Source: Methylobacterium sp. DB0501 (GTDB taxonomy: Bacteria > Pseudomonadota > Alphaproteobacteria > Rhizobiales > Beijerinckiaceae). Taken from it: a stretch of DNA of 64,000 bases. The notes under the pieces were generated by a model. That model worked only from the letters and a program-made list of their open reading frames with translations, ran no database searches and had not been told where the DNA came from. The number at the start of each line of letters is the position of its first letter. Position 1 is the stretch's first letter. The position numbers and the translations under genes are program-made. Positions 46,950-64,000 of this stretch are shown in pieces. The DNA is taken from assembly GCF_011043735.1 (NCBI RefSeq), contig NZ_JAAKGV010000026.1, forward strand, positions 1 to 64,000, in the 5' to 3' direction.

Positions 46950-47114
46950 TCTGTCGTTCCTCCCTCTGATGTATGTCTTCGCTTCGGCCGTCGGTCCGCG
47001 ACGACGGAGCTTGGTCAGTGCCCGAAGTCGAGCGGAGGTGGCGCGTGCGGCCAAAGGGGTCGCGCACCGCCTCCGTGGCCCACAGAACGATCCGAGCCTC
47101 CGGAGCTTGACCCG

Positions 47115-48659: not shown

Positions 48660-48662
48660 GGC

Positions 48663-49448: not shown

Positions 49449-49462
49449 GGCGGATCCAGCAG

Positions 49463-49488
49463 TTTCGCTATGCGAAATTTGGTTTCGC
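49463..49488. promoter_or_regulatory. operator-like site O1 at the enoyl-CoA hydratase start
   Basis: TTTCGC-TAT-GCGAAA-TTTGG-TTTCGC: an inverted repeat of TTTCGC plus a third direct copy, spaced 20 bp from the first. It lies 14 nt upstream of the enoyl-CoA hydratase ATG. O2 has the same layout. IclR regulators often bind such repeated half-sites. Confidence 0.65.
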
Positions 49489-49611
49489 ACATGATCATAG
49501 GCACTGGTCTGCACGGTTGTAAATAGGCTTTGCCGCGAGGAATCCACCCGTCCTTCAAGTGTACCCTCGCGCTGTTTTGCATTCCTTGCGCCATTCCAAG
49601 AAATCTGCTAA

Positions 49612-49637
49612 TTTCGCTATGCGGAATTGGATTTCGC
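49612..49637. promoter_or_regulatory. operator-like site O2 ahead of the IclR gene
   Basis: TTTCGC-TAT-GCGGAA-TTGGA-TTTCGC matches O1 in 22-23 of 26 positions, including both spacings. It ends 29 nt before the IclR start. The two sites are 149 bp apart and flank the divergent promoters, which fits co-regulation and possible looping. Confidence 0.65.
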
Positions 49638-49666
49638 GGATTGACAAGGCTCAAGGAGTGGCTCTA

Positions 49667-50539
49667 ATGCGCCGCAAGAACAATGACACGCACACCGGGA
49701 GCCCCGAAAAAGGTCTCGATGCTCCGACCGATGCGATACCGGCTGTCCTCGGTCCGATGGAGGCGAAATGGGAGGAGGATCGGCAGTTCGTGACCGCCCT
49801 CGGCAGAGGTCTCGAGATTCTGCGCTGCTTCACGCCGAAGGAAAATGCACTCGGCAATCAGGATATCGCGGCTCTGACCGGGCTTCCGAAGCCGACCGTC
49901 TCGCGGTTGACATACACTCTTCTGCGGCTCGGCTATCTCCGGCAAGACGCCCGCACCGGACGGTATCAGCTGGACATCGGCGTCCTCGGCTTCGGCTACT
50001 CAATGCTGTCCAATCTTGTGATCCGATCCGTCGCGGCGCCACTGATGATGGAACTTGCCGAGCACGCGAAGGCTGCCGTCGCCATGGCCGCGCGCGACCG
50101 GTTGCAGATGATCTACGTCGACGTCGTGCAGGGACAGGGCAACATGACGATGCGCCGTCAGATCGGGAGCGGCGTGCCGTTGCCGCAGAGCGCACTGGGT
50201 CGCGCCTGTCTGGCCGCGATGCCCGAGAGCGAGCGGGATTTCCTGCTCGATCATGTCCGCCGACGCGATCCGGATGGATGGCCAACCGTGCGGAAGGGCT
50301 TGGACCGGGCACTGCGTGACTATGAGGACTACGGCTACTGCCTGTCGATCGGGGAGTGGCACAAGGATGTGAATGCGGTCGCGGTGCCTTTGGTCCATAG
50401 CCAATATGGTCTCTTGGCCTTCAACTGTGGCGGCCCGAGTTTTCAGCTTTCACGCGAGAAGCTCGAAGACGATATCGGCGCGCGCTTGGTCGGAATGGTT
50501 CGCAACATCAGCTCCGCTGTCCCTTCATCGATAGGGTGA
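49667..50539 (+). CDS. IclR family transcriptional regulator
   Basis: A 290-aa regulator. The ATG at 49667 has AAGGAG 9 nt upstream. After a polar N-terminus of about 35 residues comes the winged helix domain, LGRGLEILRCFTPKENALGN followed by ALTGLPKPTVSRLTYTLLRL. The C-terminal IclR effector domain (about residues 110-280) includes AMAARDRLQMIYVDVVQGQG, GSGVPLPQSALGRACLAAMP and DVNAVAVPLVHSQYGLLAFN. It probably responds to the pathway substrate or a CoA intermediate. It is divergent from the catabolic run and co-directional with acyl-CoA dehydrogenase, with sites O1 and O2 between. Confidence 0.92.
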   Translation: MRRKNNDTHTGSPEKGLDAPTDAIPAVLGPMEAKWEEDRQFVTALGRGLEILRCFTPKENALGNQDIAALTGLPKPTVSRLTYTLLRLGYLRQDARTGRYQLDIGVLGFGYSMLSNLVIRSVAAPLMMELAEHAKAAVAMAARDRLQMIYVDVVQGQGNMTMRRQIGSGVPLPQSALGRACLAAMPESERDFLLDHVRRRDPDGWPTVRKGLDRALRDYEDYGYCLSIGEWHKDVNAVAVPLVHSQYGLLAFNCGGPSFQLSREKLEDDIGARLVGMVRNISSAVPSSIG

Positions 50540-50587
50540 CGGAGTTCTCAAACCATCGCTCGAGAGACAATCGAAGAGGAAAGGCGT

Positions 50588-51742
50588 ATGATCAGGGATC
50601 AAAACACACTGGAGATGATCACGAATTCCGTCCGTCAGTTCGTGACGGAGGTCCTGATCCCACGCGAGGAAGAAGTCGCGGAACACGACGCCATTCCTGA
50701 AGACATCATCGAGCAGATGAAATCTCTGGGCTTCTTCGGGCTGACCATTCCGGAGATGTATGGCGGTCTCGGTCTGACGATGGAAGAGGAGGTGGAGGTC
50801 GTGTTCGAACTCGGCCGCGCCTCCCCGGCCTATCGGTCATACATCGGAACGAATAACGGGATCGGTTCGCTCGGCATCTTGATCGACGGCACGGATGCCC
50901 AGAAAGATGTCTATCTTCCTCGGCTCGCGAACGGGGACTTGCTCAGTTCTTTCTGCCTAACCGAGCCCGATTCCGGCTCTGACGCCGCCTCTCTGAGGTG
51001 CACCGCAGTCCGCGACGGCGACGTCTATGTTCTGAACGGCACGAAGCGTTTCATCACGAACGCGCCGGTCGCCGACCTGTTCACGGTGATGGCTCGGACG
51101 ACGCCGGCGATTGCGGGCGCCGCGGGCATCAGCGCTTTCATCGTGGATCGCCACAGTCCTGGCCTCTCCGTCGGCAAGGCCGATCGCAAGATGGGGCAGA
51201 AGGGCGCCCTCACCAGCGACGTTATCTTCGACGACGTCGCCGTACCGGTCGGCAACTTGATCGGGGGCGTCGAAGGGATCGGCTTCAAGACTGCCATGAA
51301 GGTCCTCGACAAGGGGCGGCTGCACATCGCAGCGTTGAGCGTGGCTGCAGCCGAACGGATGCTTGCCGATGCCCTGCTCTATGCCACCGAACGCCGACAA
51401 TTCAGGAAACCGATCTCCGAGTTCCAGTTGATCCAGGCGATGCTGGCGGACAGCAAGGCTGAGATTTACGCCGCCAAATGCATGGTCCGCGATGCGGCGC
51501 GACGCCGCGACGAAGGCCTCGATGTCGGCACGGAGGCCTCGTGCGCGAAGATGTTCGCGTCTGAGATGTGCGGACGTGTCGCCGATCGCTGCGTTCAGAT
51601 CCATGGCGGCGCCGGCTACGTGAGCGACTATTCGATCGAGCGATTCTATCGGGATGTCCGGCTGTTCCGGATCTATGAAGGAACGACACAAATCCAGCAA
51701 ATCATCATCGCCCGCAACATGATCCGAGAGATCACGAGTTAA
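50588..51742 (+). CDS. acyl-CoA dehydrogenase
   Basis: A 384-aa FAD enzyme that makes the 2,3-double bond in an acyl-CoA and reduces ETF. GAGGAAAGG precedes the ATG at 50588, 48 nt after the IclR stop. Motifs: FFGLTIPEMYGGLGLTMEEE, FCLTEPDSGSDAASLRCTAV (the FAD/substrate loop) and FITNAPVADLFTVMARTTPA. The catalytic Glu is probably in FRIYEGTTQIQQIII near residue 367. QIHGGAGYVSDYSIERFYRD is the usual C-terminal region. The nearby etfAB and ETF-quinone oxidoreductase genes give its electron path. The substrate is inferred from the pathway only. Confidence 0.93.
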   Translation: MIRDQNTLEMITNSVRQFVTEVLIPREEEVAEHDAIPEDIIEQMKSLGFFGLTIPEMYGGLGLTMEEEVEVVFELGRASPAYRSYIGTNNGIGSLGILIDGTDAQKDVYLPRLANGDLLSSFCLTEPDSGSDAASLRCTAVRDGDVYVLNGTKRFITNAPVADLFTVMARTTPAIAGAAGISAFIVDRHSPGLSVGKADRKMGQKGALTSDVIFDDVAVPVGNLIGGVEGIGFKTAMKVLDKGRLHIAALSVAAAERMLADALLYATERRQFRKPISEFQLIQAMLADSKAEIYAAKCMVRDAARRRDEGLDVGTEASCAKMFASEMCGRVADRCVQIHGGAGYVSDYSIERFYRDVRLFRIYEGTTQIQQIIIARNMIREITS

Positions 51743-51988
51743 GACAATGCCGGAGCACGGCGTGAACGATCACGTTCGGCTGTAGATCCTGCGTCGTGCG
51801 ACACGCCTCGACTGAGGCGCACACGACAGAGAAGCGGAGGCGGGCAGGTCGGGATTTTGCGGCTGCCTCCCAACCCATCACAGAACTCGATTTGAGAATG
51901 GCTGTAGCGGACCCGCACTGTGCGTCCGAAGGAAGACCTATGTCCGCTGCAGACAGAACGCAACCATCAATGCAAGGGGAGGATATCG

Positions 51989-53266
51989 ATGCAAACGACT
52001 ACTGCCGGGAGCGCACGCGCAAAGGATGAGATCGCGCGTGACAGGACATGGATGTACGCCTTCGTCTTCTGTTTTCTCGCGCTGTTGATCGATGGCGCCG
52101 ATCTGATGCTGCTGGCCTACGCCTTGACGAGCATCAAGGCCGAGTTCGGGCTCACCAGCGTGGAAGCCGGCAGCCTCGGCAGCGTCACCCTCGCCGGCAT
52201 GGCGCTCGGCGGCATCTATGGCGGCTGGGCGTGCGATCGCTTCGGCCGGGTCCGGACCGTCGCGTGGACGATCATGCTGTTCTCGGTCGGCACCGCCCTG
52301 CTCGGCTTCACGCAAAGCTACCTGCAGTTCGCCGTCGTAAGGTTCGGGTCCTCCCTCGGACTTGGGGCACTCTACGTAGCCTGCAACACGCTGATGGCGG
52401 AATACGTACCGACCAAGTACCGGACGACCGTGCTCGGCACCCTGCAGGCTGGGTGGTCTGTCGGCTATGTCGTGGCAACCTTGCTGGCTGGCTGGATCCT
52501 GCCCATCCACGGCTGGCGGTGGCTGTTCTTCATCGCGATCATTCCCGTCATCCTGTCGCTTTTCATGCGCAAACTTGTCCCGGAGCCGGAGAGTTGGGTG
52601 AAGGCCAAGGCTGAACGGCTAGAGACGGCCGGCACCGTGGAGACGCAGGCCCAGCCTAGCGAGAGCGCGTTCAAGGCTGTCTTCGGCGACCCGCGCACCC
52701 GAAGCATGTTCCTGTTCTGGGCGGCCACGGCCGGATTGCTCCAGTTCGGTTATTATGGGGTCAACAATTGGCTTCCGGCCTACCTGCAGACAGAGATGAA
52801 CATGAAGTTCAGTTCAGTGACGTCCTATCTCGTCGGCAGCTACACGGCGATGATCCTGGGTAAGATCGTCGCCGGCGTGGCGGCGGACAAACTCGGCCGT
52901 CGTGCTGTTTTTGCCCTCGGTGCTCTCGGGACCGCCGTCTTTCTTCCCGTGATCGTGCTCTGGCACACTCCAGACAACATTCTCTGGATGCTGGTGGTGT
53001 TCGGCTTCCTCTATGGTGTCCCCTACGGTGTCAACGCGACCTATATGGCCGAGAGTTTCCAAGCCCGCTATCGCGGAACGGCGGTGGGCGGTGCCTACAA
53101 CCTCGGCCGGATCGGCGCGGCCCTCGCCCCGATCGTCATCGGGTTTCTCGCGAGCCAGTTCTCGATCGGCTTCGGGTTCCTGGTCATGGGGGCTGCGTAT
53201 CTCGTCTGCGGACTGATCCCCGCCCTCTTCATTCGCGAGAAGCAGTTCGATCCGAAGACCCAATAA
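51989..53266 (+). CDS. MFS acid transporter, AAHS type
   Basis: A 425-aa, 12-helix carrier. The ATG at 51989 follows GGGGAGG by 7 nt. The first helix FVFCFLALLIDGADLMLLAY carries the Asp-Gly-x-Asp motif of the aromatic acid:H+ symporter group. GGWACDRFGRVRTVAWTIML is the loop 2-3 signature, and EYVPTKYRTTVLGTLQAGWS the loop 4-5 region. The central loop (residues about 200-240) is charged. Related carriers import aromatic acids or, in dca-type clusters, dicarboxylates. It ends the plus-strand unit after acyl-CoA dehydrogenase, across a 246-nt gap, and should bring in the pathway substrate. Confidence 0.88.
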   Translation: MQTTTAGSARAKDEIARDRTWMYAFVFCFLALLIDGADLMLLAYALTSIKAEFGLTSVEAGSLGSVTLAGMALGGIYGGWACDRFGRVRTVAWTIMLFSVGTALLGFTQSYLQFAVVRFGSSLGLGALYVACNTLMAEYVPTKYRTTVLGTLQAGWSVGYVVATLLAGWILPIHGWRWLFFIAIIPVILSLFMRKLVPEPESWVKAKAERLETAGTVETQAQPSESAFKAVFGDPRTRSMFLFWAATAGLLQFGYYGVNNWLPAYLQTEMNMKFSSVTSYLVGSYTAMILGKIVAGVAADKLGRRAVFALGALGTAVFLPVIVLWHTPDNILWMLVVFGFLYGVPYGVNATYMAESFQARYRGTAVGGAYNLGRIGAALAPIVIGFLASQFSIGFGFLVMGAAYLVCGLIPALFIREKQFDPKTQ

Positions 53267-53411
53267 GTGGGTTAGCACTCGGCAGAAACGGCTCAAGTCG
53301 GACGGACAATGATGGTGCGCCGCTCAAGGCGTCGACACCAACATTGCCCGTCCGCATCGCAAGAAGAACCGAAAGCTGCATTCTTGCCATACATAGGGCA
53401 AGCTATTAGAT

Positions 53412-53972
53412 CTATGTCAGCCCTGACTGGGATGTTCTGAGTGCACGATAGACGCTGGCCCGGGCTATGCTGAGCTTCCGTGCGATCTCGGCAGGCCCCA
53501 AGCCCTCGGCCTTCAGGGCACATACCTCGGCGGGATTGATCGAGGGGGTCCGGCCCTTGTAGACGCCGGCGGCCTTGGCCTTGGCGATCCCTTCCATCTG
53601 GCGTTCGCGCCGCAGGTTGGTCTCGAACTCGGCGAAGACCCCGAGCATGTCGAGGAAGGCCTTGCCGGTGGCCGTGCCGGTGTCGATCGGCTGCTCGGTG
53701 GCCTGCAGGCGGGCGCCTTTGGCCTTCAGGGTGCGCACGATGTCCTGGAGGTCGCCGATGGAGCGGGCGAGCCGATCGATGCGGGTGACGACGAGGGTGT
53801 CGCCCTTGCCGATGAAATCCAGCACGATCGACAACTCGGTCCGGCCGGTGGTCGAGGTGCCGGAGACTTTCTCCGCCCGGATCGGGTCGCACCCGGCCGC
53901 CTTGAGGGCGTCGAGCTGGATCGTGAGGTCCTGATCAGTGGTGGAGACGCGTGCGTAGCCGATACGAGCCAT
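53412..53972 (-). CDS. serine recombinase (resolvase/invertase family)
   Basis: A 186-aa small serine recombinase. The nucleophile Ser is in MARIGYARVSTTDQDLTIQL. LDFIGKGDTLVVTRIDRLAR with the RxDRLxR motif and GVFAEFETNLRRERQMEGIA are the core and long-helix regions. The C-terminal helix-turn-helix is CALKAEGLGPAEIARKLSIA then RASVYRALR. It acts on paired short sites near its own gene. It marks the right border of the catabolic island. Resolution of a transposon or of plasmid multimers are both possible. Confidence 0.93.
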   Translation of the reverse strand: MARIGYARVSTTDQDLTIQLDALKAAGCDPIRAEKVSGTSTTGRTELSIVLDFIGKGDTLVVTRIDRLARSIGDLQDIVRTLKAKGARLQATEQPIDTGTATGKAFLDMLGVFAEFETNLRRERQMEGIAKAKAAGVYKGRTPSINPAEVCALKAEGLGPAEIARKLSIARASVYRALRTSQSGLT

Positions 53973-54004
53973 GAAGCGTCCCGGATGGATCTAGACCCTG
54001 CATG

Positions 54005-54090
54005 CTTAGCGTCGCAAAACCCCAAAAACAACCCTAATAAGACGCCGTTTTGCGTCTCAAGGTCACGACTCTTTTGGGTATACCCATCTG
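54005..54090. promoter_or_regulatory. possible recombinase sites upstream of the resolvase gene
   Basis: Three dyads lie here: GTCGCAAAAC near 54010 inverted against GTTTTGCGTC near 54052, the hairpin AGACGC-CGTTTT-GCGTCT, and the perfect 12-bp palindrome TGGGTATACCCA at 54075-54086. Small serine recombinases bind two or three such sub-sites just upstream of their own gene. Confidence 0.45.
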
Positions 54091-54188
54091 CTCCATTCAG
54101 ACCGTGACATAACTGCGCCTTGATGCGAGAATGCCGCTTAGGGAGAGATGCATTCTTACTCCCTGGATAGGTGGCAGGGCTAACGCTG

Positions 54189-54476
54189 ATGGCAGAGCTA
54201 ATTCGCCGAACCGTACAGGTGGCCGAGAATGGAAGGATGAACCTCCCTGCCGAGATGCGTCGCGGCCTAGGACTGACCGGACCGGGGCGTGTGATCCTCA
54301 CTCAGGATGAGGATGGCATCCGTATCACGACGGCCGACCAAGCCCTCAGACGCATTCGCGCCCTGGCTGCTCCATTTGCCCAAGGACGAGCGTCCGTAGT
54401 CGACGAATTCCTCGCGGAGCGTCGGGCTGAAGCGGCCCGTGAGGAGGGCGGGGAAGCGGATGCCGGGCATGACTGA
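54189..54476 (+). CDS. AbrB/MazE-like antitoxin of a VapC pair
   Basis: A 95-aa antitoxin; the ATG at 54189 is chosen, with GTG at 54171 as alternative. The swapped-hairpin domain reads IRRTVQVAENGRMNLPAEMR and RGLGLTGPGRVILTQDEDG, as in AbrB-type antitoxins. The tail AAPFAQGRASVVDEFLAERR with EEGGEADAG is the toxin-binding part. It overlaps the VapC gene by 8 nt. The same arrangement is at 59691-60319, whose antitoxin shares the D-E-FLA-x-R ending. Confidence 0.8.
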   Translation: MAELIRRTVQVAENGRMNLPAEMRRGLGLTGPGRVILTQDEDGIRITTADQALRRIRALAAPFAQGRASVVDEFLAERRAEAAREEGGEADAGHD

Positions 54477-54861
54477 TCCGGTTCTGGATGCCTCGGCGGT
54501 GCTGGCCGTCATATTCGACGAGCCGGGTGCCGATCGCGTGGCGGCCCACCTGCCCGGCGCGCGGATCTCCGCGGTCAACGCCGCGGAGGTGATGACCAAG
54601 CTCGTCGATCTCGGGATGCCGGAGGATACCGTCGACGCGATCTTCGAGGGGCTGCAGCTCACGATCCTGCCCTTCGAGATGGCTCATGCGCGCGAGACCG
54701 CGCGCCTGCGGACGCTCACCCGGGCGGCCGGCCTCTCGCTCGGCGATCGCGCCTGCCTGGCGGTGGCGGGACAGCTCGATGCCCCTGCGTTCACGACCGA
54801 TCGGGCTTGGTCGCGGGTGGACGGTGCCGTCGTCGGCGTCACGATCGAGCTGCTGCGCTGA
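54469..54861 (+). CDS. vapC: VapC-type PIN-domain toxin
   Basis: A 130-aa PIN ribonuclease. The first acidic cluster is VLDASAVLAVIFDEPGADRV, then a Glu in ISAVNAAEVMTKLVDLGMPE, the third acid in AGLSLGDRACLAVAGQLDAP, and the last in AFTTDRAWSRV. All four expected positions are filled. The start at 54469 overlaps the antitoxin. It is clearly related to the VapC at 59930 (GLSLGDRYCLALANREGVPA) and less so to that at 10947. It should cleave RNA when released. Confidence 0.85.
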   Translation: MTDPVLDASAVLAVIFDEPGADRVAAHLPGARISAVNAAEVMTKLVDLGMPEDTVDAIFEGLQLTILPFEMAHARETARLRTLTRAAGLSLGDRACLAVAGQLDAPAFTTDRAWSRVDGAVVGVTIELLR

Positions 54862-54865
54862 ACCG

Positions 54866-55540
54866 ATGGCGGGCGCCGCGGCCCTCGTGGTGATCGCCGC
54901 AGGGCTCAACGAGCGGCAGCGGGCCTATCTGCTCGCCACCTACGACGAGGATCAGGCCCGCGAGGCGACGCATCGCGGGCCGGGCGGTCCTCCGGCCCGG
55001 CGCTGGCGCTGGATCGAGTACGGGCCTGTCGGTCACAAGTGGCTCGATGGGCCAGGATCCCGCCTGCTGCGGGCCAAGCTGACGCAGTCCGGCATGGTCA
55101 GCCAGGGGACCGGCGCCACATGGGCGGCGCTGGCCGAGCGCGGCCTGCTGACCACGCGACACGAGCATACCGGCCTGATCGACACGCGCAGCCGCCGGGC
55201 GATCCGGTCCCTCATGGTGCGGCTGACGACCGACGGCCGGAAGGTGGCCCGCCTCCTGCGGGGCGAGCCGCCGACACGGCCGCGGAGCATGGAGCCCAAG
55301 CCGCTCTCCCTGTCGGCGCTGCGCCTGGTGGCCTACGGCCAGCAGCATCCCGAGGAGGCGTTCGATTTCCATGCCCCCTGGGGCGTGTGCCCGCTCGACT
55401 ACCTCGTGGTCCTCGGGATCTGCCGCGGCCTCGTGAAGCGCGGGCTGCTCGCCGGCGACCCGCCGACCCGGCTCCGGATCACCCCGGCCGGCTCGGTCCT
55501 CGACGTCACGCAGGAGACCAACTGGAAGCCCTTCGCCTGA
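54866..55540 (+). CDS. hypothetical protein with winged-helix-like segments, 224 aa
   Basis: Not assigned to a named family. It starts 4 nt after the vapC stop, so it is in the same transcript. Two regions look like winged-helix ends: SQGTGATWAALAERGLLTTR, then IRSLMVRLTTDGRKVARLLR, and later LVVLGICRGLVKRGLLAGDP, LRITPAGSVLDVTQ. N-terminal LNERQRAYLLATYDEDQARE is also typical of small DNA-binding regulators. A DNA-binding role is likely but its target is unknown. Position after a toxin-antitoxin pair may be accidental. Confidence 0.65.
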   Translation: MAGAAALVVIAAGLNERQRAYLLATYDEDQAREATHRGPGGPPARRWRWIEYGPVGHKWLDGPGSRLLRAKLTQSGMVSQGTGATWAALAERGLLTTRHEHTGLIDTRSRRAIRSLMVRLTTDGRKVARLLRGEPPTRPRSMEPKPLSLSALRLVAYGQQHPEEAFDFHAPWGVCPLDYLVVLGICRGLVKRGLLAGDPPTRLRITPAGSVLDVTQETNWKPFA

Positions 55541-55712
55541 AATCCCGAGAGCGTGTCGCCGCGTTCCGACTGGTGAGCGGCGCACGGGCCTTGAGTCCTG
55601 GTCAAGGTGGTAGCCGCAGCGGTCCCCAGAGGAGTTCCGGCTCGGTCGACCGGCGGCGCGGCCGGCTGGCCCACGCGGCGATGGCGTCTCGGAGCGCTCC
55701 TCTCTCGGTCGG

Positions 55713-56561
55713 TCAGGATGAGCGCTGAACGAGGGCCTGCAGACTCGCCAGGATCGAGGCAGCCTCGTACGGCTTGCGGACCACCGGCACGTCCTTCAGT
55801 TGGGCAGGGATGTTGGCGCTGTCGCCATAGCCGGTCGCGAACAGGAACGGGACGTTGCGCCGCCGCAGCTCCTCCGCGACGGCGATCGACGTTCCCACCC
55901 CGAGGTTGATGTCCAGCACCGCGACATCCGGCGTCCGGGCAGCGAGAAGCTTCAACGCTTCCGACTCGGAGCCTGCCGTGACGACGTGCTCGATCCGGGC
56001 GTTGGCCAGGATCTGTTCGAGGCCGACCGCGATGACGAGTTGGTCCTCGAGGATCATCACGCACAGCTCGGCCAAGTCTTCGACGTCGAGAGCGGGAGGG
56101 AGAACGGACGGTACGGGCCGCGCGACGTCCCTGGCTTTGGACACCGTCAGATACCTTGCCGGGATCCTGAAGTGGCCCCGCAGCCCCTCGGGCCGGTACT
56201 CGACGGCGCTCGATCCGCCGAGATCGTAGGGGATGCTGCGGTCGATCAGAACGGACCCGAAGCCGCTGCGGCTCGGGGGACGGACCTCCGGACCGCCGCT
56301 CTCGCGCCAGGTGATGTCGCAGGTGCCGCCGGCATCGATCGTCCAGGCGACCGCGAGCTTGCCGCCCGGGCGGGACAGCGCGCCGTACTTGGCGGCGTTC
56401 GTCGCCAGTTCGTGCAACACCAGGGCCATGACGGAGTAGGCCCGCGCGTCGAGCACGAGGGAAGGCCCCGCCGTCTCGATGGCATCGGCGGCGGTGCGGT
56501 AGGGGGTCAGTTCCGCGTCGAGGAGCGCGGCGAGACTGCCGCCACCGTCGCCCCGCACGAC
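55713..56561 (-). pseudogene. detached C-terminal part of the phytochrome kinase: HATPase and receiver
   Basis: This part shares the reading frame of the gene at 56562-58259 and is cut from it by one TAG. It begins RGDGGGSLAALLDAELTPYR, continues with the HWE-type ATP-binding N-box LVLHELATNAAKYGALS and GSVLIDRSIPYDLGG, then a receiver domain: CVMILEDQLVIAVGLEQILA with the acidic pocket, VAVLDINLG with the phosphoacceptor Asp and PVVRKPYEAASI with the Lys. It could be translated on its own from GTG at 56558 as a kinase tail without its histidine. More likely it is the rear of an 848-aa protein. Confidence 0.7.
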
Positions 56562-58259
56562 CTAGTCGTGCGCCAGGGACAGCGCCTGGATCCGGCCCTT
56601 CAGCGTCGCGACGTAGCCTGCGAGGCTCTGGCCTTCCTCGGTCGGGTGGGCGACGAGGGCCCCGATCAGCGCGAGGATGTTCTTGACCCGATGGTTGAGC
56701 TCCTCGTTGAGCATGCGCTGGCGGACGTCCGCCTTCGACCGCTCGTCGGCCAGCAGCTCGCTGTTGTGGAGCACGACCTCGACCACGGCGGCGCGGATGG
56801 CCTCGCCGAACTGCCGGTCCTGCTCGGTCCAGGGCTGCGACTGGCAGTGGACCGTCTCCTTCCAGACGGCGAAGCTCTTGCGTGGGGTCAGGCGATCGCC
56901 GAACGGGCCGCTCTCGTAGCTCTTGTTCGGGTCGCCGGCCCATTCGAGGGTCTCGACCACCTCCCTGCGGAACAGCATCAGATAGTCCTGCGGGCGCTGC
57001 GACATCGGGATGACCAGCGCGCCGGAGACGTCGCCGGCGTAGTCCTGCGCGGGCGCATGCGCGGCCGACAGCCGGTTGGAGGCCCAGGTCCGGCCTTCCG
57101 CCACCCCCTCGGCGAAGCGCAGCAGGGCCGGGAGAGCGGGCTTGGGTGGCGTGGTGCCCTCCGAGGACCACCGCCCCCCGAGCGACATGCCGATGCCGTC
57201 GCAGGGGATCAGCGCCTTGAAGACGGTCATGCGGGAACGGAGCAGCTCCTCGACGTCGGCGGACCGGTTCGCGTCCCTCAGCAGGTCGTCGAGGAACTGG
57301 CGCGCGCGGGTCGCGGCCTCCAGCGTCTGCCTCGCGCGCATGGTCTCGATGTGCAGCGAGAAGAACTCGCCGAACATCTCGGCGGCGACCCGCTGGCCCA
57401 GCGTCAGGGTCCGCGGCGCGTAGTGGTGGCAGGCGATCAGTCCCCACAGAGCGCCGCCGACGATGATCGAGATCGACATCGAGGCGCCGACGCCCATGTT
57501 GCGCAGGTACTCGCAATGGATCGGCGAGACGCTGCGCAGGTGCGCGTGAGACAGGTCGAGGGGCTCGCCCGACAGGTCGAGGACCGGCTCGATCGGAACG
57601 GTCTTGAAGTCGGCGTCGGAGATGACGCGGATCGGGTTGCGCAGGTAGAGGGCCCGCGCCTGCTGCGGGATGTCGGAGCCGGGGAAATTCTGCCCCATGA
57701 AGCTTTCGAGGTCGCCGCGCTTGGCCTCGGCGATCACCTTGCCGGCGCCGTCCGCGCCGAGCTGGTAGATCATCACCCGGTCGTAGCCGAGCATGGCCCG
57801 GACGAGCCGTGCGGTGTCGCGAAACAGCCGGTCCGTCCTGTCGACGTCCCGGACGTGGGCGACGACCGTGCGCGCGAGTTCGAGGGGTTCGGCGACGTTG
57901 TCGCCGGCCGGCTCGAACTCGACGACGACCGTGCCCTTGAAGCGGTGGGCGGCGACGTCGAACGCTCGTCCGGACGGAAGCGTCAGGCCGAACGTCAGCG
58001 CCGGCCGGGACGCCTCCTTCGCGCGGGCCAGAGCGTTCCGGACGGCATGGGCGGCCTCGTCCCCGAGGACCGCCTCCAGCCGCAGGCCGTTCGGGTTGCC
58101 GGCCATCCCGAGCATGGCCGGCGCGTTCGCGGAATGGCGGAGCACGACGTTCGCCGCGGTGTCGCAGGCGAGCAGGCCGCCGTGGGGCTGGATGCTTCCC
58201 GGGATCTGGATCGGTTCCCGATCGCAATTGGTGAGGTCGACGCGTGGTCCAGAGATCAT
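56562..58259 (-). CDS. phytochrome-type sensor, HWE kinase, truncated by TAG
   Basis: A 565-aa front part of a bacteriophytochrome kinase. The PAS domain has the bilin-binding Cys12 in LTNCDREPIQIPGSIQPHGG. The GAF domain includes FPGSDIPQQARALYLRNPIR and SPIHCEYLRNMGVGASMSIS. The PHY domain has the tongue motif LTPRKSF. The phospho-accepting His is in LNEELNHRVKNILALIGALV. The frame then meets TAG at 56562 after SLAHD; the next codons continue the kinase, so the ATP-binding domain and receiver are lost unless the stop is read through. In relatives Gln often stands at this place, so CAG to TAG is likely. Confidence 0.82.
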   Translation of the reverse strand: MISGPRVDLTNCDREPIQIPGSIQPHGGLLACDTAANVVLRHSANAPAMLGMAGNPNGLRLEAVLGDEAAHAVRNALARAKEASRPALTFGLTLPSGRAFDVAAHRFKGTVVVEFEPAGDNVAEPLELARTVVAHVRDVDRTDRLFRDTARLVRAMLGYDRVMIYQLGADGAGKVIAEAKRGDLESFMGQNFPGSDIPQQARALYLRNPIRVISDADFKTVPIEPVLDLSGEPLDLSHAHLRSVSPIHCEYLRNMGVGASMSISIIVGGALWGLIACHHYAPRTLTLGQRVAAEMFGEFFSLHIETMRARQTLEAATRARQFLDDLLRDANRSADVEELLRSRMTVFKALIPCDGIGMSLGGRWSSEGTTPPKPALPALLRFAEGVAEGRTWASNRLSAAHAPAQDYAGDVSGALVIPMSQRPQDYLMLFRREVVETLEWAGDPNKSYESGPFGDRLTPRKSFAVWKETVHCQSQPWTEQDRQFGEAIRAAVVEVVLHNSELLADERSKADVRQRMLNEELNHRVKNILALIGALVAHPTEEGQSLAGYVATLKGRIQALSLAHD

Positions 58260-58456
58260 GGCCTGCCGCCCGTGAACGACCGGCTGGATGCGCGACCGCT
58301 TGAAAAGGTTCCGCCGGGCGAGGCACTTGCCGCCGACGTCCCCATCCCCGTTCTACGCCCCGCGCCGGTCTCCGTCATCTCGGTTCACCGGGTGAGGTGG
58401 ATCCCGAGGCGAACGCCACGAGCTGGTGGTGCGGCGAGGTCGAGCCGTCGCCAGCC

Positions 58457-59410
58457 TCAACTCCGGTGTCGGTGGGCCGACGGGTGAAGGTGAGCCGCGG
58501 CCTGTCCACGCCCGGCCAGCCTGGCTCGGCCAAGGAGTTGCAGGCGGGCCCTCACGGCTTCGTGGGCAGCCTCCTGCGTCTTGAGGACTGCGGCTTCCCT
58601 GGGCGAGGCCGCGCGGGTGTAGGCGTAGCAGCAGGGCCGCCCCTCCTGCCCGTGGAGGTGGGGGCCCCACACGCTCGCGGTCTTCGGGTCGAGGAGAAAC
58701 GTGCGGCCGAAACCATCGATCACGCGGGCTTCGGCGCCGATCCGCACCAATGATCCGGAGACCGGCCGGAGGGCGAGCAGCATCAAGACCCGGCCGGCCC
58801 GGCGCGCCCGCGCGGCCGCCTCGCGAGCCTCCTCGTCAACGCCCCGCTCCCGTGCCGCGGCCGCGGCCGCCCTCGCGAGGGATTCCTCCATCCGGTCGAC
58901 CACGCCGTGCAGGGCACGGACGTTCGCGAGGGAAACGGACCACGCCTTCAGATCCGGCAGGAAGCGAGCGCCCGGGACCGTGCGGACGAGAGCCACCGCT
59001 TCCTCGTTGTAGGCAAAGCCGACCCTCACATGGTCGTCCCTCACGCTCACGAGGATGTGGCGCGTCGAGAGCTGCTGGCCGTTGTGGGCGAGCGCGGCGA
59101 GGTACGAGCGTCCCTCGAGGCCGGGAGTGTCGAGGGGGATCGCGTGCCCCTCGAACTCGGCATCGCGCAGGATCCGCTCGATCCTGGCCTGCACCTCGCG
59201 CTGTTCCTGCGCGACGGCTTCCGCGAACCGGGTCACCCGGTTGACCGCGAGCACGCCCGGGACGTGCCACGATCTCGTTGCGAGGCGGAAGCGGGCCCTT
59301 GGGAAGGTCTGCTTGAACCGGGGCAGCATCGTCGGATCGGCGTCGGAGAGTTGCACGAGGGCGCCGTCCGGGAGGGCCGTGATGGCGAAGCCGCCGATCG
59401 TCGTCATCAT
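58457..59410 (-). CDS. protein with two HARP-like repeats
   Basis: A 317-aa protein starting at 59410 or 59407. Two related repeats are visible. TMLPRFKQTFPRARFRLATR with SWHVPGVLAVNRVTRFAEAV is the first, and LVRTVPGARFLPDLKAWSVS with LANVRALHGVVDRMEESLAR the second. They resemble HARP-type modules of annealing helicases (F-x-x-x-x-W-x-V). The C-terminal part is Ala/Arg-rich and ends in LHGQEGRPCCYAYTRAA. DNA binding is plausible. It has a leader hairpin (L5) and no strong ribosome binding site. Confidence 0.6.
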   Translation of the reverse strand: MMTTIGGFAITALPDGALVQLSDADPTMLPRFKQTFPRARFRLATRSWHVPGVLAVNRVTRFAEAVAQEQREVQARIERILRDAEFEGHAIPLDTPGLEGRSYLAALAHNGQQLSTRHILVSVRDDHVRVGFAYNEEAVALVRTVPGARFLPDLKAWSVSLANVRALHGVVDRMEESLARAAAAAARERGVDEEAREAAARARRAGRVLMLLALRPVSGSLVRIGAEARVIDGFGRTFLLDPKTASVWGPHLHGQEGRPCCYAYTRAASPREAAVLKTQEAAHEAVRARLQLLGRARLAGRGQAAAHLHPSAHRHRS

Positions 59411-59414
59411 GGAG

Positions 59415-59455
59415 GTCGCCCCTTCGATCGGAGCCTCTCCGATCACGGCCGACGT
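59415..59455 (-). promoter_or_regulatory. leader hairpin L5
   Basis: An 8-bp perfect stem, GATCGGAG-AGG-CTCCGATC (59426-59444), lies 15 nt upstream of the HARP-like gene. The loop is shorter than in L2-L4, as in L1. A GTCG/CGAC pair may form the outer stem. Confidence 0.5.
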
Positions 59456-59690
59456 CTCGCAGGCCTGGCCAAGGCTGAGTCTAGAGGAGCCCGTGGCGCC
59501 TGTATGCGCCATCCGTCATGGCGCATATCTCATTCAGCGGCGGGAAAAGGTACGCTTTGCAACAGTGAGGACGACACCGTGCCTGCGAAGGAGCGCCGTG
59601 GATCCATATGGCCACCGTCTCCGCATTTTATGGCTATCTCGGCTTCACATGGCGTATATGACTTTCTGTGGCGAACGATGGATATGCCCC

Positions 59691-59933
59691 ATGAAAGCTA
59701 AAGTGATGCCGGACGGGCGGATGAGCCTGCCAGCCGATCTCCGGAAACGGCACGGGCTCGGCAACGGCGGCGAAGTCATCGTCGAGGATACCGGGGACGC
59801 CATCGTGCTCCGGACGCTCGATCAGGTGGTGGCGCGGGCACAGGCACTGAGCCGCAAGCTGATCGCCGGCAAAGCTGGCGCCACCGTCGAGGACTTCCTG
59901 GCTGACCGGGCCCGTGAGGCTCGAGGCGAATGA
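59691..59933 (+). CDS. AbrB/MazE-like antitoxin of a second VapC pair
   Basis: An 80-aa antitoxin with start at the ATG at 59691; other ATGs nearby are out of frame. The AbrB-like domain is MKAKVMPDGRMSLPADLRKR then HGLGNGGEVIVEDTGDAIVL. The tail AGATVEDFLADRAREARGE binds the toxin. It overlaps vapC by 4 nt (ATGA). No good ribosome binding site precedes it, so expression may depend on the leader. Its promoter region (59500-59690) is AT-richer than its surroundings. Confidence 0.78.
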   Translation: MKAKVMPDGRMSLPADLRKRHGLGNGGEVIVEDTGDAIVLRTLDQVVARAQALSRKLIAGKAGATVEDFLADRAREARGE

Positions 59934-60319
59934 CACGTTTCGTCTTGGATGCGTCTGCACTCCTAGCACTTCTGCTTGAAGAGCCTGGAGCCGACAAGGT
60001 CAAAGATGTGCTCGACCAGTGCGTCATGACGGCCGTCAACCTGGCCGAAGTGGTGAGTCACTACGCAAAGCTCGGCGCCGAGCGCCACGATATCGAGGCA
60101 CTGCTTCGGCCTCTGCCAATCCAGTTGATCCCGGTCGACACGATGTTGTCCTATGACGCTGGCCTATTGCGTTCAGTCACTCTCGAAGGCGGACTGTCAT
60201 TGGGGGACCGCTATTGCTTGGCACTGGCAAACCGTGAAGGCGTGCCAGCGCTGACTGCCGAGCGGCGCTGGCCGGAGATTGCGAGTGTTGCTGGTGTTAG
60301 GATTGAATTGATCCGGTGA
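59930..60319 (+). CDS. vapC: VapC-type PIN-domain toxin
   Basis: A 129-aa PIN ribonuclease. Acidic residues: FVLDASALLALLLEEPGADK, VNLAEVVSHYAKLGAERHDI, GGLSLGDRYCLALANREGVP and LTAERRWPEIASVAGV (here the usual final Asp appears as Glu). Overlap of its ATG with the antitoxin stop indicates coupling. It is a paralogue of the VapC at 54469 in the same subfamily. A small helical gene follows after 6 nt. Confidence 0.84.
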   Translation: MTRFVLDASALLALLLEEPGADKVKDVLDQCVMTAVNLAEVVSHYAKLGAERHDIEALLRPLPIQLIPVDTMLSYDAGLLRSVTLEGGLSLGDRYCLALANREGVPALTAERRWPEIASVAGVRIELIR

Positions 60320-60325
60320 ACGACC

Positions 60326-60580
60326 ATGACTGGCGACAATGACGATTTCTCACCGCTTCATGAACGACTGCACGCAGCCCGCCGGCTTCTGGCTGAGGCT
60401 TACGAGCGCCGCGATGTCCTCGCCCGCCAAATTGCGACCGTCGAGGCGACGGACGGCATCGGCCTCCCCGTCGATCTGATGAATGCCTACGGCGCGGCCG
60501 AGCGGGCAGTGCTGGTGGCCGAGGCTGATATGAAGGACGCGGAACACGCCCTCGCCATCGCGAGCGAACGCCTGCCGTAG
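60326..60580 (+). CDS. small helical hypothetical protein, 84 aa
   Basis: An unrecognised 84-aa protein in the same transcript as the VapC pair. The sequence is almost entirely helical with heptad spacing, FSPLHERLHAARRLLAEAYE, RRDVLARQIATVEATDG and AERAVLVAEADMKDAEHALA, so a coiled coil is likely. There is no signal sequence. Its position behind the toxin gene could mean a third component, but the order could also be accidental. Confidence 0.6.
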   Translation: MTGDNDDFSPLHERLHAARRLLAEAYERRDVLARQIATVEATDGIGLPVDLMNAYGAAERAVLVAEADMKDAEHALAIASERLP

Positions 60581-60697
60581 CTGCTCTCGCCCGACATCGC
60601 CCACGGCTCGACCATCTCCGCGACGACGTAGGGCCGCCCTTGGGCCGCACGAGGCAGCGGGCGCTCCTCAGCCCGCCCGGGCCGACATCCTCTCCCA

Positions 60698-61186
60698 TCA
60701 TGCGGTCCCGGCGGGCGGCCTGCTGTAGAGGTCGGCGCGCGCCAAGCCATCGCCGATCCCCTGGGCGATCCGATCGTGGGCTGCGGCCTCGGTCACATCG
60801 GGGTCCCAGGTGTAGACGTCCCGATGAGCCCCGACCTGACGACCGATCTCCCGCGGCCAGCGGCCGAGGGTGATCCAGGGCCAGCCAGGCGCTGGTGGCT
60901 CGTAGAGCGCCAGGACCGGGTCGCCGCCGCTGCCCGGCCGGCTCACGGCGGCGTCCGGGCCTGCGGAGAAGTCGAAGGCACCGGCCCGGCGCGGCACGGG
61001 CCGGGCCAGGGCCGCGAGCAGAGCCTCGCGTTCCGCCGGGGTCTCGACGGCCCAGAGCTTCCAGGGTGTCTCCGCGGCGATATCGGGCGGCCAACGCCCG
61101 AGGCAGAGGTCCGGCAGCCCGGGGAGGAAGCCGCCGTACCAGACGATCGGCATCCAGGATGTGAGGGGTGCGATGGGGTCGATCAT
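60698..61186 (-). CDS. hypothetical protein, 162 aa
   Basis: An unrecognised protein. GAAGGA precedes the ATG at 61186. Two similar segments, DLCLGRWPPDIAAETPWKLW and WPWITLGRWPREIGRQVGAH, each with LGRWP, suggest an internal repeat. The C-terminus is GIGDGLARADLYSRP. No membrane or signal segment. It is the last of a run of three minus-strand hypotheticals (62307 to 60698). Confidence 0.6.
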   Translation of the reverse strand: MIDPIAPLTSWMPIVWYGGFLPGLPDLCLGRWPPDIAAETPWKLWAVETPAEREALLAALARPVPRRAGAFDFSAGPDAAVSRPGSGGDPVLALYEPPAPGWPWITLGRWPREIGRQVGAHRDVYTWDPDVTEAAAHDRIAQGIGDGLARADLYSRPPAGTA

Positions 61187-61352
61187 CGGGCGATCCTTCG
61201 GCGGCGTCGGGTTGTGGTGCCTCCTTGCGGCAGCTCATCCCTCGGTCCCAACGAGAAGCCGGACTGCCAGTTCGCGCGGTTCCGGTCCCGACGACAGGTC
61301 CGTCATGGCGCGGACCGCTCCCACGATACGCTCCGCCGCGGCGATCGCGGCC

Positions 61353-61937
61353 TCACCTCGGCTCTGTGGGCCGCTCGATCGGCGCGACGTCGCGCAGCTC
61401 GACGAACGCGACCTTCTCCGAGCGCTCGGCGCCGATCAGGCGGAGATTGACGTAGACGTGGTCGGCGAAGACGGCGCTGCACAGGCGCCAGATCACGCCC
61501 GTGCGGCCGACGCGCCGCTCCGCGCTGCCGTCCAGGGTCAGGGGCGCCCCGGTGATCCGCACCGGCTGGCCCACGCGCAGCCAGTTGGCGGCGCTGGCGA
61601 CGAGAGCGGCGATCTCCTCGGCGGTGAGGCTCGCCCGCGTGGTGCGGGCGAAGGGCGTCCGGGGGTCGGCCGCGAGGCGCCGCGCCTGTTCCTCGGGGCT
61701 TAAGTCGTGGAACAACTCCACCTCGTAGTCGGGCGTCCAGGCCTGCGGCGCCGGCTGCTTGGGGGAGGCGCGGAACACCTCGATCGCCGGCCCGCCGAGC
61801 AGGTCGGGCTGGATGCCGATCAGGGCACGCTCGTACTGCGCCTGGCGGTACTCGGCCCGCCAGCGGGCGTCGCTGCCGGCCGGCAGCCGCGTCACGTCCT
61901 GGCGAACGTGGTGGGACTTCCTGGATCGTCTCGGCAT
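61353..61937 (-). CDS. hypothetical protein with SH3/KOW-like tail, 194 aa
   Basis: A 194-aa protein starting at the ATG at 61937, with GAGGG upstream. The N-terminus is basic (MPRRSRKSHHVRQDVTRLPA). The middle has LSPEEQARRLAADPRTPFAR. The last 65 residues are beta-rich: LRVGQPVRITGAPLTLDGSA, RRVGRTGVIWRLCSAVFADH and EKVAFVELRDVAPIERP, as in small SH3/KOW barrels that bind RNA or DNA. It follows the 119-aa gene after 10 nt. No specific family was recognised. A short frame, MTDLSSGPEPRELAVRLLVG, at 61306-61235 may also be coding but lacks support. Confidence 0.6.
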   Translation of the reverse strand: MPRRSRKSHHVRQDVTRLPAGSDARWRAEYRQAQYERALIGIQPDLLGGPAIEVFRASPKQPAPQAWTPDYEVELFHDLSPEEQARRLAADPRTPFARTTRASLTAEEIAALVASAANWLRVGQPVRITGAPLTLDGSAERRVGRTGVIWRLCSAVFADHVYVNLRLIGAERSEKVAFVELRDVAPIERPTEPR

Positions 61938-61947
61938 GGCGCAGCCC

Positions 61948-62307
61948 TCACGCGAGGCCGATGCGGCGGGCGGTCTCCAGCTCGCCCGGGTCGACGTCGC
62001 CGGCGAGGCCGATATGCGTCGCGAGCGCCGCCAGCAGGACCTCCTCCCAGATCGGGAGGCCGCCGGGGCTGCGGGAGCCTTGCAGGTCGAGGTAGATGCC
62101 GGCGTCGAAACCGGCCTCGGCCCGGGCGCGGATCGCGGCGATGCCGGAGGCGAGCGCGGCGCCGTCGATATCGTCCTGATCCTGGAACGCCTCGGTGGTC
62201 GCGAGCCAACCCTCGAACCCGCGCACGAAGCAGGGCAGGCCGACACGCTCGGCCTCCTCGTGCTGGGCGTCGGACGTGGCGGAGGTGATGATAGGCTGGA
62301 TGAGCAT
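61948..62307 (-). CDS. hypothetical protein, 119 aa
   Basis: An unrecognised 119-aa protein with start at the ATG at 62307. Sequence: MLIQPIITSATSDAQHEEAE, LPCFVRGFEGWLATTEAFQD, GIAAIRARAEAGFDAGIYLD and EEVLLAALATHIGLAGDVDP. It looks like a soluble, mostly helical protein. It is the first gene of the minus-strand trio, and leader hairpin L6 lies about 40 nt upstream. Small backbone genes with this leader type also occur at 15184 and 38539. Confidence 0.55.
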   Translation of the reverse strand: MLIQPIITSATSDAQHEEAERVGLPCFVRGFEGWLATTEAFQDQDDIDGAALASGIAAIRARAEAGFDAGIYLDLQGSRSPGGLPIWEEVLLAALATHIGLAGDVDPGELETARRIGLA

Positions 62308-62345
62308 CGGATCGTCTCCCGAGAGGGAAGGTTCCTCGCCGGCCC

Positions 62346-62370
62346 GGATCGGAGCCTCTCTCCGGTCCTG
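62346..62370 (-). promoter_or_regulatory. leader hairpin L6
   Basis: CGGAG-AGAGG-CTCCG (62350-62364) is identical to the inner hairpin of L4. It lies about 40 nt upstream of the 119-aa gene, further than in L1-L5, and an outer stem is not obvious. Confidence 0.45.
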
Positions 62371-62484
62371 GGAGCCGTCATCCAGGCCAGGCCCACCCTG
62401 GCTCCGGTGCGCTTTGGAGCGCTACAGCAAGGGCACCGGATCGGCGCCCCCTGCGACGTGCCCCTTCAGCCAGATGATGCCGTG

Positions 62485-62967
62485 ATGCCAAATCTGACCG
62501 ATCGCCAGCGCGTCGAGCTCGCGATCCCGGCCTACCTCCTCTACGCGCTGACCTCGGCGCCGGGCGTGTTCGTCCCGGCCGACCCGGCCCTGGCCGCTCG
62601 GGCCGAGGCCGACATCGCGGCGATGCGCTTTGACCTGAGGGCGGCCTGCTTCGAGCCGCTGGAGGACGTTTCCGAGAGGAAGAAGGGCGCTCTGCTGCGG
62701 CGGGTCGAGCGGATTGCGCGGGGCGTGATCGTCGACTGGAAGGATCGGCCGGCGCTGAGCGTGATGCTGACGCTCTGGTACGTCCTGAAGGAACTGACCG
62801 ACCGCGAGGTGCTGATCCTGTGGCAGGGTTCGGCGATGGATCGGGCGACGAGCCGGCTGCTGCCGATGTTCGCGCACGGGTTCGAGGAGCAGAAGCGCGA
62901 CGCCTCGGCCCAGGAGCAGGCCCGCCAGCTTCTCTCCCAGCTTCAGGAAGAGGGGCTGTACCGCTGA
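62485..62967 (+). CDS. hypothetical protein, 160 aa
   Basis: An unrecognised protein with start at the ATG at 62485 (MPNLTDRQRVELAIPAYLLY). There is no clear ribosome binding site. It is mostly helical: DIAAMRFDLRAACFEPLEDV, RRVERIARGVIVDWKDRPAL, SVMLTLWYVLKELTDREVLI and EEQKRDASAQEQARQLLSQL. The middle hydrophobic helix is not long enough to be clearly transmembrane. It is divergent from the minus-strand trio and convergent with repB. It is probably a conserved plasmid hypothetical. Confidence 0.6.
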   Translation: MPNLTDRQRVELAIPAYLLYALTSAPGVFVPADPALAARAEADIAAMRFDLRAACFEPLEDVSERKKGALLRRVERIARGVIVDWKDRPALSVMLTLWYVLKELTDREVLILWQGSAMDRATSRLLPMFAHGFEEQKRDASAQEQARQLLSQLQEEGLYR

Positions 62968-63342
62968 GGCACCACCCGCGCCTCCCTATTTTCGGGGATC
63001 GGCAGGCTCGACCGCCCTCCCCTATCCGCGGGCTCGCGCGAGGCGATCGTAACCCGTCAGGGCCGAAACCGCGCAGTGGGTTCGGGGAGGCGCCCTAGGC
63101 GGCGAGTAGAGCGCGGTCCCGCAGGGACGCGCCCTCATGCTCCGTCTTCGATCTTTCCGTTCTGCGATAGAGAACGGTGTTATTTCAAACTTCGACCCCT
63201 TATGTCAGGCTGACAGATCGACAAATTGGCCTTACCGGAGGCTGCTGGAGGCGGTGCGGCCTTAGGAGAGACGGACCGCGACGTTGAGCTTGGCCGCCTC
63301 TCACTGCCCTTTCACTGCCCTTTCCCGCTCGACGGCGAACGC
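62968..63342. other. gap downstream of repB
   Basis: No gene is visible. A hairpin (CCGTTCT-GCGAT-AGAGAACGG, 63157-63177) and the short palindrome TGTCAG-G-CTGACA (63203-63215) lie between the two convergent genes. The first could help end transcripts. No copy of a 16-bp GTT-N4-GC-N4-AAC type centromere was seen here. Confidence 0.4.
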
Positions 63343-64000
63343 TCAGCTTTGAGAAGCATTTTCGGCACCGGCTTGTCCGGGATCGGAGCCTGCGCCTCTA
63401 TCACGGAAGGACGCATACAGCTCGTCAAGCTGCGAGGCCACGAACTCCCCAAATGCGGGATCGCGGTTGATAGCGAGCGTGACAGTTGCACCGCTCCGCG
63501 AGATGCGGGCCGTTGCATTCCCCCCCTGCCCTCTCCACGCCGTGGATCTTGGATCAGACTCCGTCCGCGGCGTTGCTGCTGCAAACACCCGCAGGAACCG
63601 AGCATCGCTGTCCAACGCCGCGAAAGCTTCCTCCCTGACAACTCGCTCCACGACCTTCACGCTTCCGGCATTCTCCAGGAGTTCGGCAAGGGCTAACCAG
63701 CGGCGGCGACCCGCCTTGGGAGCAGGTCCGACCGCCTGCACGATCGGTTCAGGAACTGCGCGAGCGACCGAGATCAGTTTCGAGAGTTCCCCCTTATCGG
63801 TCGAGAGAGCATCAACGATGACCGAACGCTCGAAGCCTCGATCCTCCAGCCTGCGTGCGAACAAGGCCTTCTCGATATAGGTGAGGTCCTGCCGGGCTGA
63901 GTTCTCGACGCCCTGGGCCACAACGAGTTCGACGTCGCTCAGCGTGCGGACGACAGCGCGCACGCGTTGTCCGAGTTCAGCAGCAGCCCGCAACCGCCGA
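63343..64000 (-). CDS. repB: plasmid partition protein RepB, C-terminal part
   Basis: This is the C-terminal 218 residues of a repABC-type ParB homologue; the frame continues past the window edge, so the start is outside. The visible part has AELGQRVRAVVRTLSDVELV, VAQGVENSARQDLTYIEKAL, FARRLEDRGFERSVIVDALS and STDKGELSKLISVARAVPEP, the central ParB region with helix-turn-helix typical of RepB. The C-terminal part is AWRGQGGNATARISRSGATV then DPAFGEFVASQLDELYASFR, the RepB tail. It binds the plasmid centromere and works with RepA in segregation. RepC and RepA should lie beyond the window on opposite sides of it. Confidence 0.93.
   Translation of the reverse strand, partial: RRLRAAAELGQRVRAVVRTLSDVELVVAQGVENSARQDLTYIEKALFARRLEDRGFERSVIVDALSTDKGELSKLISVARAVPEPIVQAVGPAPKAGRRRWLALAELLENAGSVKVVERVVREEAFAALDSDARFLRVFAAATPRTESDPRSTAWRGQGGNATARISRSGATVTLAINRDPAFGEFVASQLDELYASFRDRGAGSDPGQAGAENASQS

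What the first reader, a model, noticed from the sequence alone, without database searches (positions are those of the whole stretch)
55713..58259. Phytochrome HWE kinase split by an in-frame TAG between the histidine domain and the ATPase domain
The frame is open from 58259 to 55713 apart from one TAG at 56562-56564. Both halves are complete in motifs: bilin Cys, tongue PRxSF and the phospho-His before it, N-box and receiver after it. A CAG to TAG change explains it. If read as two proteins, a sensor with a phospho-His but no ATPase and a separate ATPase-receiver would result, which could still cooperate in trans.
Basis: partly seen in the sequence, partly recalled or inferred. Interest (0 to 1): 0.5.

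Follow-up and report, generated by a model that had tools for sequence, protein, structure and literature searches.

The report
Plasmid light-sensor gene broken by stop
A bacterial light-sensor (phytochrome) gene on a Methylobacterium plasmid carries a real stop codon in place of a highly conserved glutamine; it is most likely a recently disabled gene and otherwise ordinary.

Summary
The minus-strand frame 58259-55713 is open except for TAG at 56562-56564. It encodes PAS-GAF-PHY, an HWE kinase and a receiver, the order found in Agrobacterium Agp2. The stop is not a sequencing error: the gene is base-identical on plasmid pA of Methylobacterium sp. FF17. The two plasmid copies differ at 14 positions, none in the gene, and their hosts differ by about 11% over the longer aligned rpoB-region stretch. 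In relatives the site is Gln in 90 of 104 loci that align there, Leu/Val/Ile in 14, never a stop; among 66 well-aligned relatives the codon is CAG in 57 and CAA in 9. No tRNA with anticodon CUA was seen among 68 tRNA matches, and the only restart codon that keeps the whole ATPase part lacks a ribosome-binding site. Nothing downstream looks eroded. Best reading: a recent CAG-to-TAG nonsense mutation, inherited by both copies of a plasmid that crossed species, leaving a phytochrome without ATPase and receiver. A two-protein kinase working in trans is not excluded but has no positive support.

The parts
55713..58259 (-). whole phytochrome reading frame (848 codons + stop), interrupted at codon 566
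   Evidence: relatives align over nearly the whole length
56562..56564 (-). in-frame TAG at codon 566, where relatives have Gln (CAG/CAA)
56562..58259 (-). truncated product if TAG is obeyed: 565 aa, PAS-GAF-PHY plus nearly all of the DHp (phospho-His) domain
58224..58226 (-). Cys12, expected biliverdin attachment site
   Evidence: sequence; nearly invariant C12; role from established knowledge
57906..58226 (-). PAS_2 domain (residues 12-118)
57351..57833 (-). GAF domain (residues 143-303)
56760..57299 (-). PHY domain (residues 321-500), tongue PRKSF at residues 459-463
56565..56702 (-). HWE_HK (DHp) match before the stop, residues 520-565, phospho-acceptor His523 at 56691-56693
   Evidence: H523 invariant
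55716..56561 (-). sequence after the stop: CA (ATPase) domain with N-box HELATNAAKYG, then receiver
55746..56060 (-). receiver (Response_reg) domain, phospho-acceptor Asp783 at 55911-55913
   Evidence: D783 invariant
56556..56558 (-). only in-frame ATG/GTG/TTG that would give the complete ATPase-receiver part (GTG); no ribosome-binding site

Best explanation
The gene is a plasmid-borne, Agp2-type phytochrome (PAS-GAF-PHY-HWE kinase-receiver, likely a bathy phytochrome) disabled by one recent C-to-T change that turned a conserved Gln codon, CAG, into TAG. Translation should stop at codon 566. That leaves at most a 565-residue photoreceptor that could still bind biliverdin and dimerise but lacks the ATP-binding and receiver domains, so it cannot autophosphorylate or relay. 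The mutation predates the split of the two plasmid copies known from two Methylobacterium species. Shown: the stop, its presence in two independent assemblies, Gln as the usual residue, no erosion elsewhere, no visible suppressor tRNA. Inferred: no full-length product, loss of signalling, bathy character.
For: The TAG is in the frame and, base-identical over 2547 bp, in FF17 plasmid pA. The copies differ at 14 sites, all outside the gene, and the host rpoB regions are 89% and 93% identical in the two aligned stretches. Gln in 90 of 104 loci aligned at the site, with 0 stops there; CAG 57 and CAA 9 of 66; invariant in the 31 other rows. No CUA anticodon. No ribosome-binding site at the GTG behind the stop: -1.5 kcal/mol against a background mean of -3.8. 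Recent: 6 changes at 348 otherwise invariant positions, against 0-13 in 25 relatives each left out in turn. Both hosts keep other phytochrome genes with open frames.
Against: The stop lies close to the border between two domains that can work apart in other kinases, and both sides are undamaged, as a functional split would also look. The two copies are identical in the gene, so selection after the mutation cannot be measured. No expression data. The tRNA set is incomplete: no tRNA-Ile(GAT) or tRNA-Ala(TGC) was seen. dN/dS against M. planeticum is higher after the stop (0.24) than before it (0.15), and M. planeticum itself shows only 2 changes in the left-out test against the window's 6; but the window's private changes are not concentrated behind the stop.
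Confidence: 0.88

Rival explanations
1. Two-protein kinase: the 565-residue sensor-DHp protein and a reinitiated 281-residue ATPase-receiver protein work together in trans.
For: The stop and the next in-frame GTG are one codon apart (TAG GTC GTG), a spacing that can allow reinitiation; catalytic motifs on both sides are intact. EnvZ domains A and B are recalled to work when mixed (recalled, no call).
Against: No ribosome-binding site at that GTG. None of 104 relatives has a stop at this site. The stop cuts the last two turns off the DHp helix (low-confidence model) and removes an invariant Gln. FF17's locus tags leave room for one feature here, not two (weak, because the gene table is incomplete).
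Confidence: 0.05
2. Amber suppression or read-through: some full-length phytochrome is still made. (Low-level read-through would not exclude the best explanation.)
For: Near-cognate reading of UAG by tRNA-Gln(CUG) happens at low level in bacteria in general (recalled); such a tRNA is present.
Against: 68 tRNA matches in the genome; ARAGORN finds none with anticodon CUA in the 62 loci that hold them; the one weak match that it did not call has a loop that I read as TCT. No tRNA on the plasmid contig.
Confidence: 0.05
3. Sequencing or assembly error.
For: A single-base difference would be enough.
Against: The same TAG is in the complete FF17 plasmid, a separate assembly that differs from this one at 14 other positions and lies in another species.
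Confidence: 0.01
4. The truncated protein is itself selected: a light-sensing DHp dimer acting as a phosphatase or as a dominant-negative partner of other phytochromes.
For: The DHp domain of EnvZ or NtrB alone gives a constitutive phosphatase phenotype in vivo (passages of PMC3510030). The hosts have further phytochromes. Agp1 and Agp2 are reported to work together and to interact (title and start of the abstract of PMC11931990).
Against: No sign of selection can be read from identical copies; HWE kinases differ from HisKA kinases; its own receiver is lost.
Confidence: 0.03

Closest known systems
Agp2 / AtBphP2 of Agrobacterium fabrum and AvBphP2 of Allorhizobium (Agrobacterium) vitis: bathy phytochromes, photosensory core - HWE kinase - receiver
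   Same: Same domain order (passages of PMC11021371); the closest solved structure is 6g1y (that it is Agp2 is recalled); A. vitis relatives align at about 55-56% over residues 7-846.
   Different: Here the kinase is interrupted by TAG at codon 566; the gene is on a plasmid of Methylobacterium; the photochemistry is not known.
Relatives with an open frame in Methylobacterium planeticum (L059) and in the group L060-L083, nearly all Pseudomonas
   Same: 83% and 68-76% protein identity over 836-848 residues.
   Different: They have Gln at codon 566 and no stop in the aligned frame.
Plasmid pA of Methylobacterium sp. FF17 (NZ_CP107533.1)
   Same: The same plasmid, and the same TAG.
   Different: 14 base differences elsewhere; another host species.

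Membership tests
Agp2-type bacteriophytochrome (PAS-GAF-PHY-HWE-HK-REC) | PAS_2, GAF and PHY domains in order | tested here: met
   all above the curated cut-offs
Agp2-type bacteriophytochrome (PAS-GAF-PHY-HWE-HK-REC) | Cys near the N-terminus for biliverdin and PRxSF tongue | tested here: met
   Cys12 and PRKSF 459-463 in the translation; C12 nearly invariant
Agp2-type bacteriophytochrome (PAS-GAF-PHY-HWE-HK-REC) | one continuous protein with HWE kinase and C-terminal receiver | tested here: not met
   TAG at codon 566 separates DHp from CA and receiver; HWE_HK (partial) and receiver are recognised on either side
Agp2-type bacteriophytochrome (PAS-GAF-PHY-HWE-HK-REC) | Pfr dark state (bathy) | not testable with these tools
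   needs spectroscopy
Pseudogene by nonsense mutation | stop where intact relatives have a sense codon one change away | tested here: met
   CAG in 57 of 66 relatives; no stop at the site in 104 loci
Pseudogene by nonsense mutation | relaxed selection after the mutation | tested here: inconclusive
   the two copies are identical in the gene; about 0.36 changes would be expected from 14 per 99,759 bp (my arithmetic)
Natural split kinase or recoded gene | start signal for the second part, or a suppressor tRNA | tested here: not met
   the tRNA set is not complete
Natural split kinase or recoded gene | split conserved across independent lineages | tested here: not met
   0 of 104 relatives; the FF17 copy is the same plasmid

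The most novel reading that the evidence does not exclude
The stop has turned a hybrid photoreceptor kinase into a kinase-less, light-sensing DHp dimer, with or without a separately made ATPase-receiver protein. It would act as a light-set phosphatase or dominant-negative partner on the host's other phytochrome pathways, and would travel between species on a plasmid.
Probability: 0.06. Interest if true: 0.5.

Novelty: new member of a known kind. Interest (0 to 1): 0.14.

Why it matters
It settles a doubtful stop codon: it is real and shared by two species through one plasmid, so it should be annotated as a pseudogene candidate and not as two working genes. It also documents an Agp2-type phytochrome on a plasmid that carries conjugation genes, which touches on reports that Agp1 and Agp2 control conjugation in A. 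fabrum (passages of PMC8117939). If the truncated protein were active it would be a natural test of what a phytochrome does without its kinase.

Tried and rejected
Sequencing error: rejected because of the second plasmid copy. Suppressor tRNA: none seen; not fully closed, since no tRNA-Ile(GAT) or Ala(TGC) turned up. Reinitiation: the GTG behind the stop scores below the gene's own background for a ribosome-binding site; a later GTG at 56456 scores -5.6, like the main start at -5.8, but would leave out 35 residues behind the stop. Erosion after the stop: not seen; residues changed in the window only versus in M. planeticum only (at sites where at least 80% of 24 other relatives agree) were 18:6 in PAS-GAF-PHY, 1:0 in DHp, 4:2 in CA and 4:2 in the receiver, so the excess of window changes is not special to the part behind the stop. 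Pseudogene status from FF17's gene table: the table lists nothing under the gene and skips one locus tag, but it also skips the tag at an intact IclR-like frame at window 49559-50539 (the name is my reading, no family search was made), so this is weak evidence. Conserved neighbours: between window 45001-64000 and 20-kb stretches around the relatives in G030 (M. planeticum), G092 and G075, only the phytochrome gene matches; no shared operon was found. Pfam scans of 5 neighbours in L059, 3 in L062 and 2 in the window gave no heme oxygenase. L004, chosen as a chromosomal yardstick, turned out not to be conserved in the other genomes, so the rpoB regions were used. A search for papers on separately expressed DHp and catalytic domains found none; one on EnvZ domains listed 8 of 55 papers, of which I looked at passages of one.

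Full report
What is there. The minus-strand frame from ATG at 58259 to the stop at 55713-55715 has 848 codons with a single internal stop, TAG, at codon 566 (56562-56564). Pfam finds PAS_2 (12-118), GAF (143-303), PHY (321-500) and the first 46 of 83 positions of HWE_HK (520-565) before the stop. After it there is a receiver, and a HATPase_c_2 match below its curated cut-off. The closest solved structure to the first part is 6g1y, 'Bacteriophytochrome protein', E = 3e-193; that this is Agp2 of Agrobacterium is recalled. Passages of PMC11021371 describe the Agrobacterium and Allorhizobium proteins as having an HWE kinase plus a C-terminal receiver, and name AtBphP2_D783N; the window's receiver Asp is also residue 783.

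Is the stop real? The gene is base-identical over all 2547 bp in plasmid pA of Methylobacterium sp. FF17, NZ_CP107533.1, and in G040:C2, which by length (99,759) and coordinates is the same record; so there are two independent sources, not three. The window's contig G000:C19 (100,058 bp) is a circular copy of the same plasmid, with a 299-bp overlap of its ends. The two copies differ at 14 positions, none in the gene. The hosts are different species: the two aligned stretches of their rpoB regions are 89% (3458 bp) and 93% (1070 bp) identical, and each is the one genome held for its species (tool description of the genome search). A shared error in two separate assemblies that differ elsewhere is very unlikely. 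Of the 14 differences, 8 were placed in annotated genes: 5 are silent and 3 change a residue. The other 6 were not classified there; 3 of them lie in or just before the IclR-like frame, whose translation is unchanged.

What was ancestral? Of 108 loci (28, 80), 104 align across codon 566: 90 have Gln, 11 Leu, 2 Val, 1 Ile, none a stop. All 90 Gln rows align over much of the phytochrome (442 bits or more); 1 of them, L101 from a metagenome bin, has a stop elsewhere in the aligned frame. One further long alignment (L038) has Leu, and the other 13 rows align only over the kinase part or little more. In one search, which used the 80 loci and kept the 66 with at least 400 bits, the codon is CAG in 57 and CAA in 9. 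In a 32-row alignment Gln566 is invariant in the 31 other rows (in the window's row it was set by reading TAG as Gln). One change, CAG to TAG, explains the stop.

Where does it cut? In an AlphaFold model of the read-through protein (mean pLDDT 79, pTM 0.54) codon 566 lies in a helix spanning 546-572, which I take as the second DHp helix, and the CA domain follows from about 576 (pLDDT around the site is about 46, so the exact end of the helix is uncertain). So the first product keeps nearly all of the DHp hairpin with His523 and loses ATP binding.

Could it still work? Suppression: the genome has 68 tRNA matches over the cut-off. All 68 lie in the 62 loci that I gave to ARAGORN; it names tRNAs in 61 of them, 95 gene calls with overlapping loci counted repeatedly, and none has anticodon CUA. 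The remaining weak match (L211) has a loop that I read as TCT. No tRNA lies on the plasmid contig. tRNA-Ile(GAT) and Ala(TGC) were not seen, so the set is not complete. Reinitiation: the GTG one codon after the stop has a predicted anti-Shine-Dalgarno pairing of -1.5 kcal/mol, weaker than the gene's background mean of -3.8; the main start has -5.8. None of the 104 relatives has a stop at this site. The trans-acting kinase therefore has no positive evidence. It is not excluded: recalled work on EnvZ shows DHp and CA domains acting as separate proteins, and passages of PMC3510030 say that DHp alone is sufficient for phosphatase activity in EnvZ and NtrB.

How old is it? At 348 positions invariant in 25 relatives the window differs at 6 (3 of 200, 0 of 38, 2 of 67, 1 of 43 by region). 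Relatives left out one at a time differ at 0 to 13 such positions, M. planeticum at 2; the Pseudomonas relatives are close to one another, which lowers their counts. dN/dS against M. planeticum is 0.15 before and 0.24 after the stop. The window branch has more private changes than M. planeticum, but before the stop (19:6) as well as after it (8:4). So there is no sign of long decay, and the mutation looks recent. With 14 differences per 99,759 bp, only about 0.36 would be expected in the gene, so its identity in the two copies says nothing about selection after the stop.

Context. The plasmid carries repABC, VapC-type toxin-antitoxin pairs on both sides of the gene, Dot/Icm-like and Ti-type tra genes, as annotated in FF17. 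The genome's single match to the heme oxygenase family PF01126 is not here but on contig C24, beside another phytochrome. The window's host has two further phytochrome genes with open frames, and G040 three. Loss of this one may therefore be tolerable (inference). Only the phytochrome gene itself, not its flanks, matches the M. planeticum locus, so it seems to have arrived as a single gene (inference).

Verdict. The likely meaning is an ordinary, recent nonsense mutation carried on a plasmid that crossed species. Searches of the paper library for the strain (3 papers, 3 listed) and for split or broken bacteriophytochromes (12 of 42 listed) listed nothing on this gene by title or start of abstract; I opened none of those papers. 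The odds given for the rival readings are not strictly exclusive.

Noticed in passing
window 1-64000 (contig G000:C19): The window lies on a repABC plasmid of about 99.8 kb, 99.99% identical to pA of Methylobacterium sp. FF17 although the hosts are only 89-93% identical in the rpoB region: a recent transfer between species.
   Followed up: yes
L224 (NZ_CP107533.1 50000-99759): PLSDB types the plasmid as non-mobilizable, yet its gene table lists a Ti-type TraA relaxase, TraC, TraD and TraG and a Dot/Icm-like secretion set.
   Followed up: no
window 54171-54861 and 59634-60319: AbrB/VapC toxin-antitoxin pairs flank the phytochrome on both sides, annotated so in FF17.
   Followed up: no
window 49540, 49615, 49987: 3 of the 14 differences between the plasmid copies fall within 450 bp, in and just before an IclR-like frame (49559-50539; name is my reading) that FF17's gene table omits.
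   Followed up: partly
G000:C34:72434-72501 (L211): A tRNA-like remnant with a weak score (33 bits), not called by ARAGORN; anticodon loop reads as TCT; possibly the scar of an integrated element.
   Followed up: partly
L060-L083, L119: Among the loci the nearest relatives outside Methylobacterium are nearly all Pseudomonas (68-76% protein identity), closer than those of other Alphaproteobacteria (61% or less): a sign of transfer between classes.
   Followed up: no
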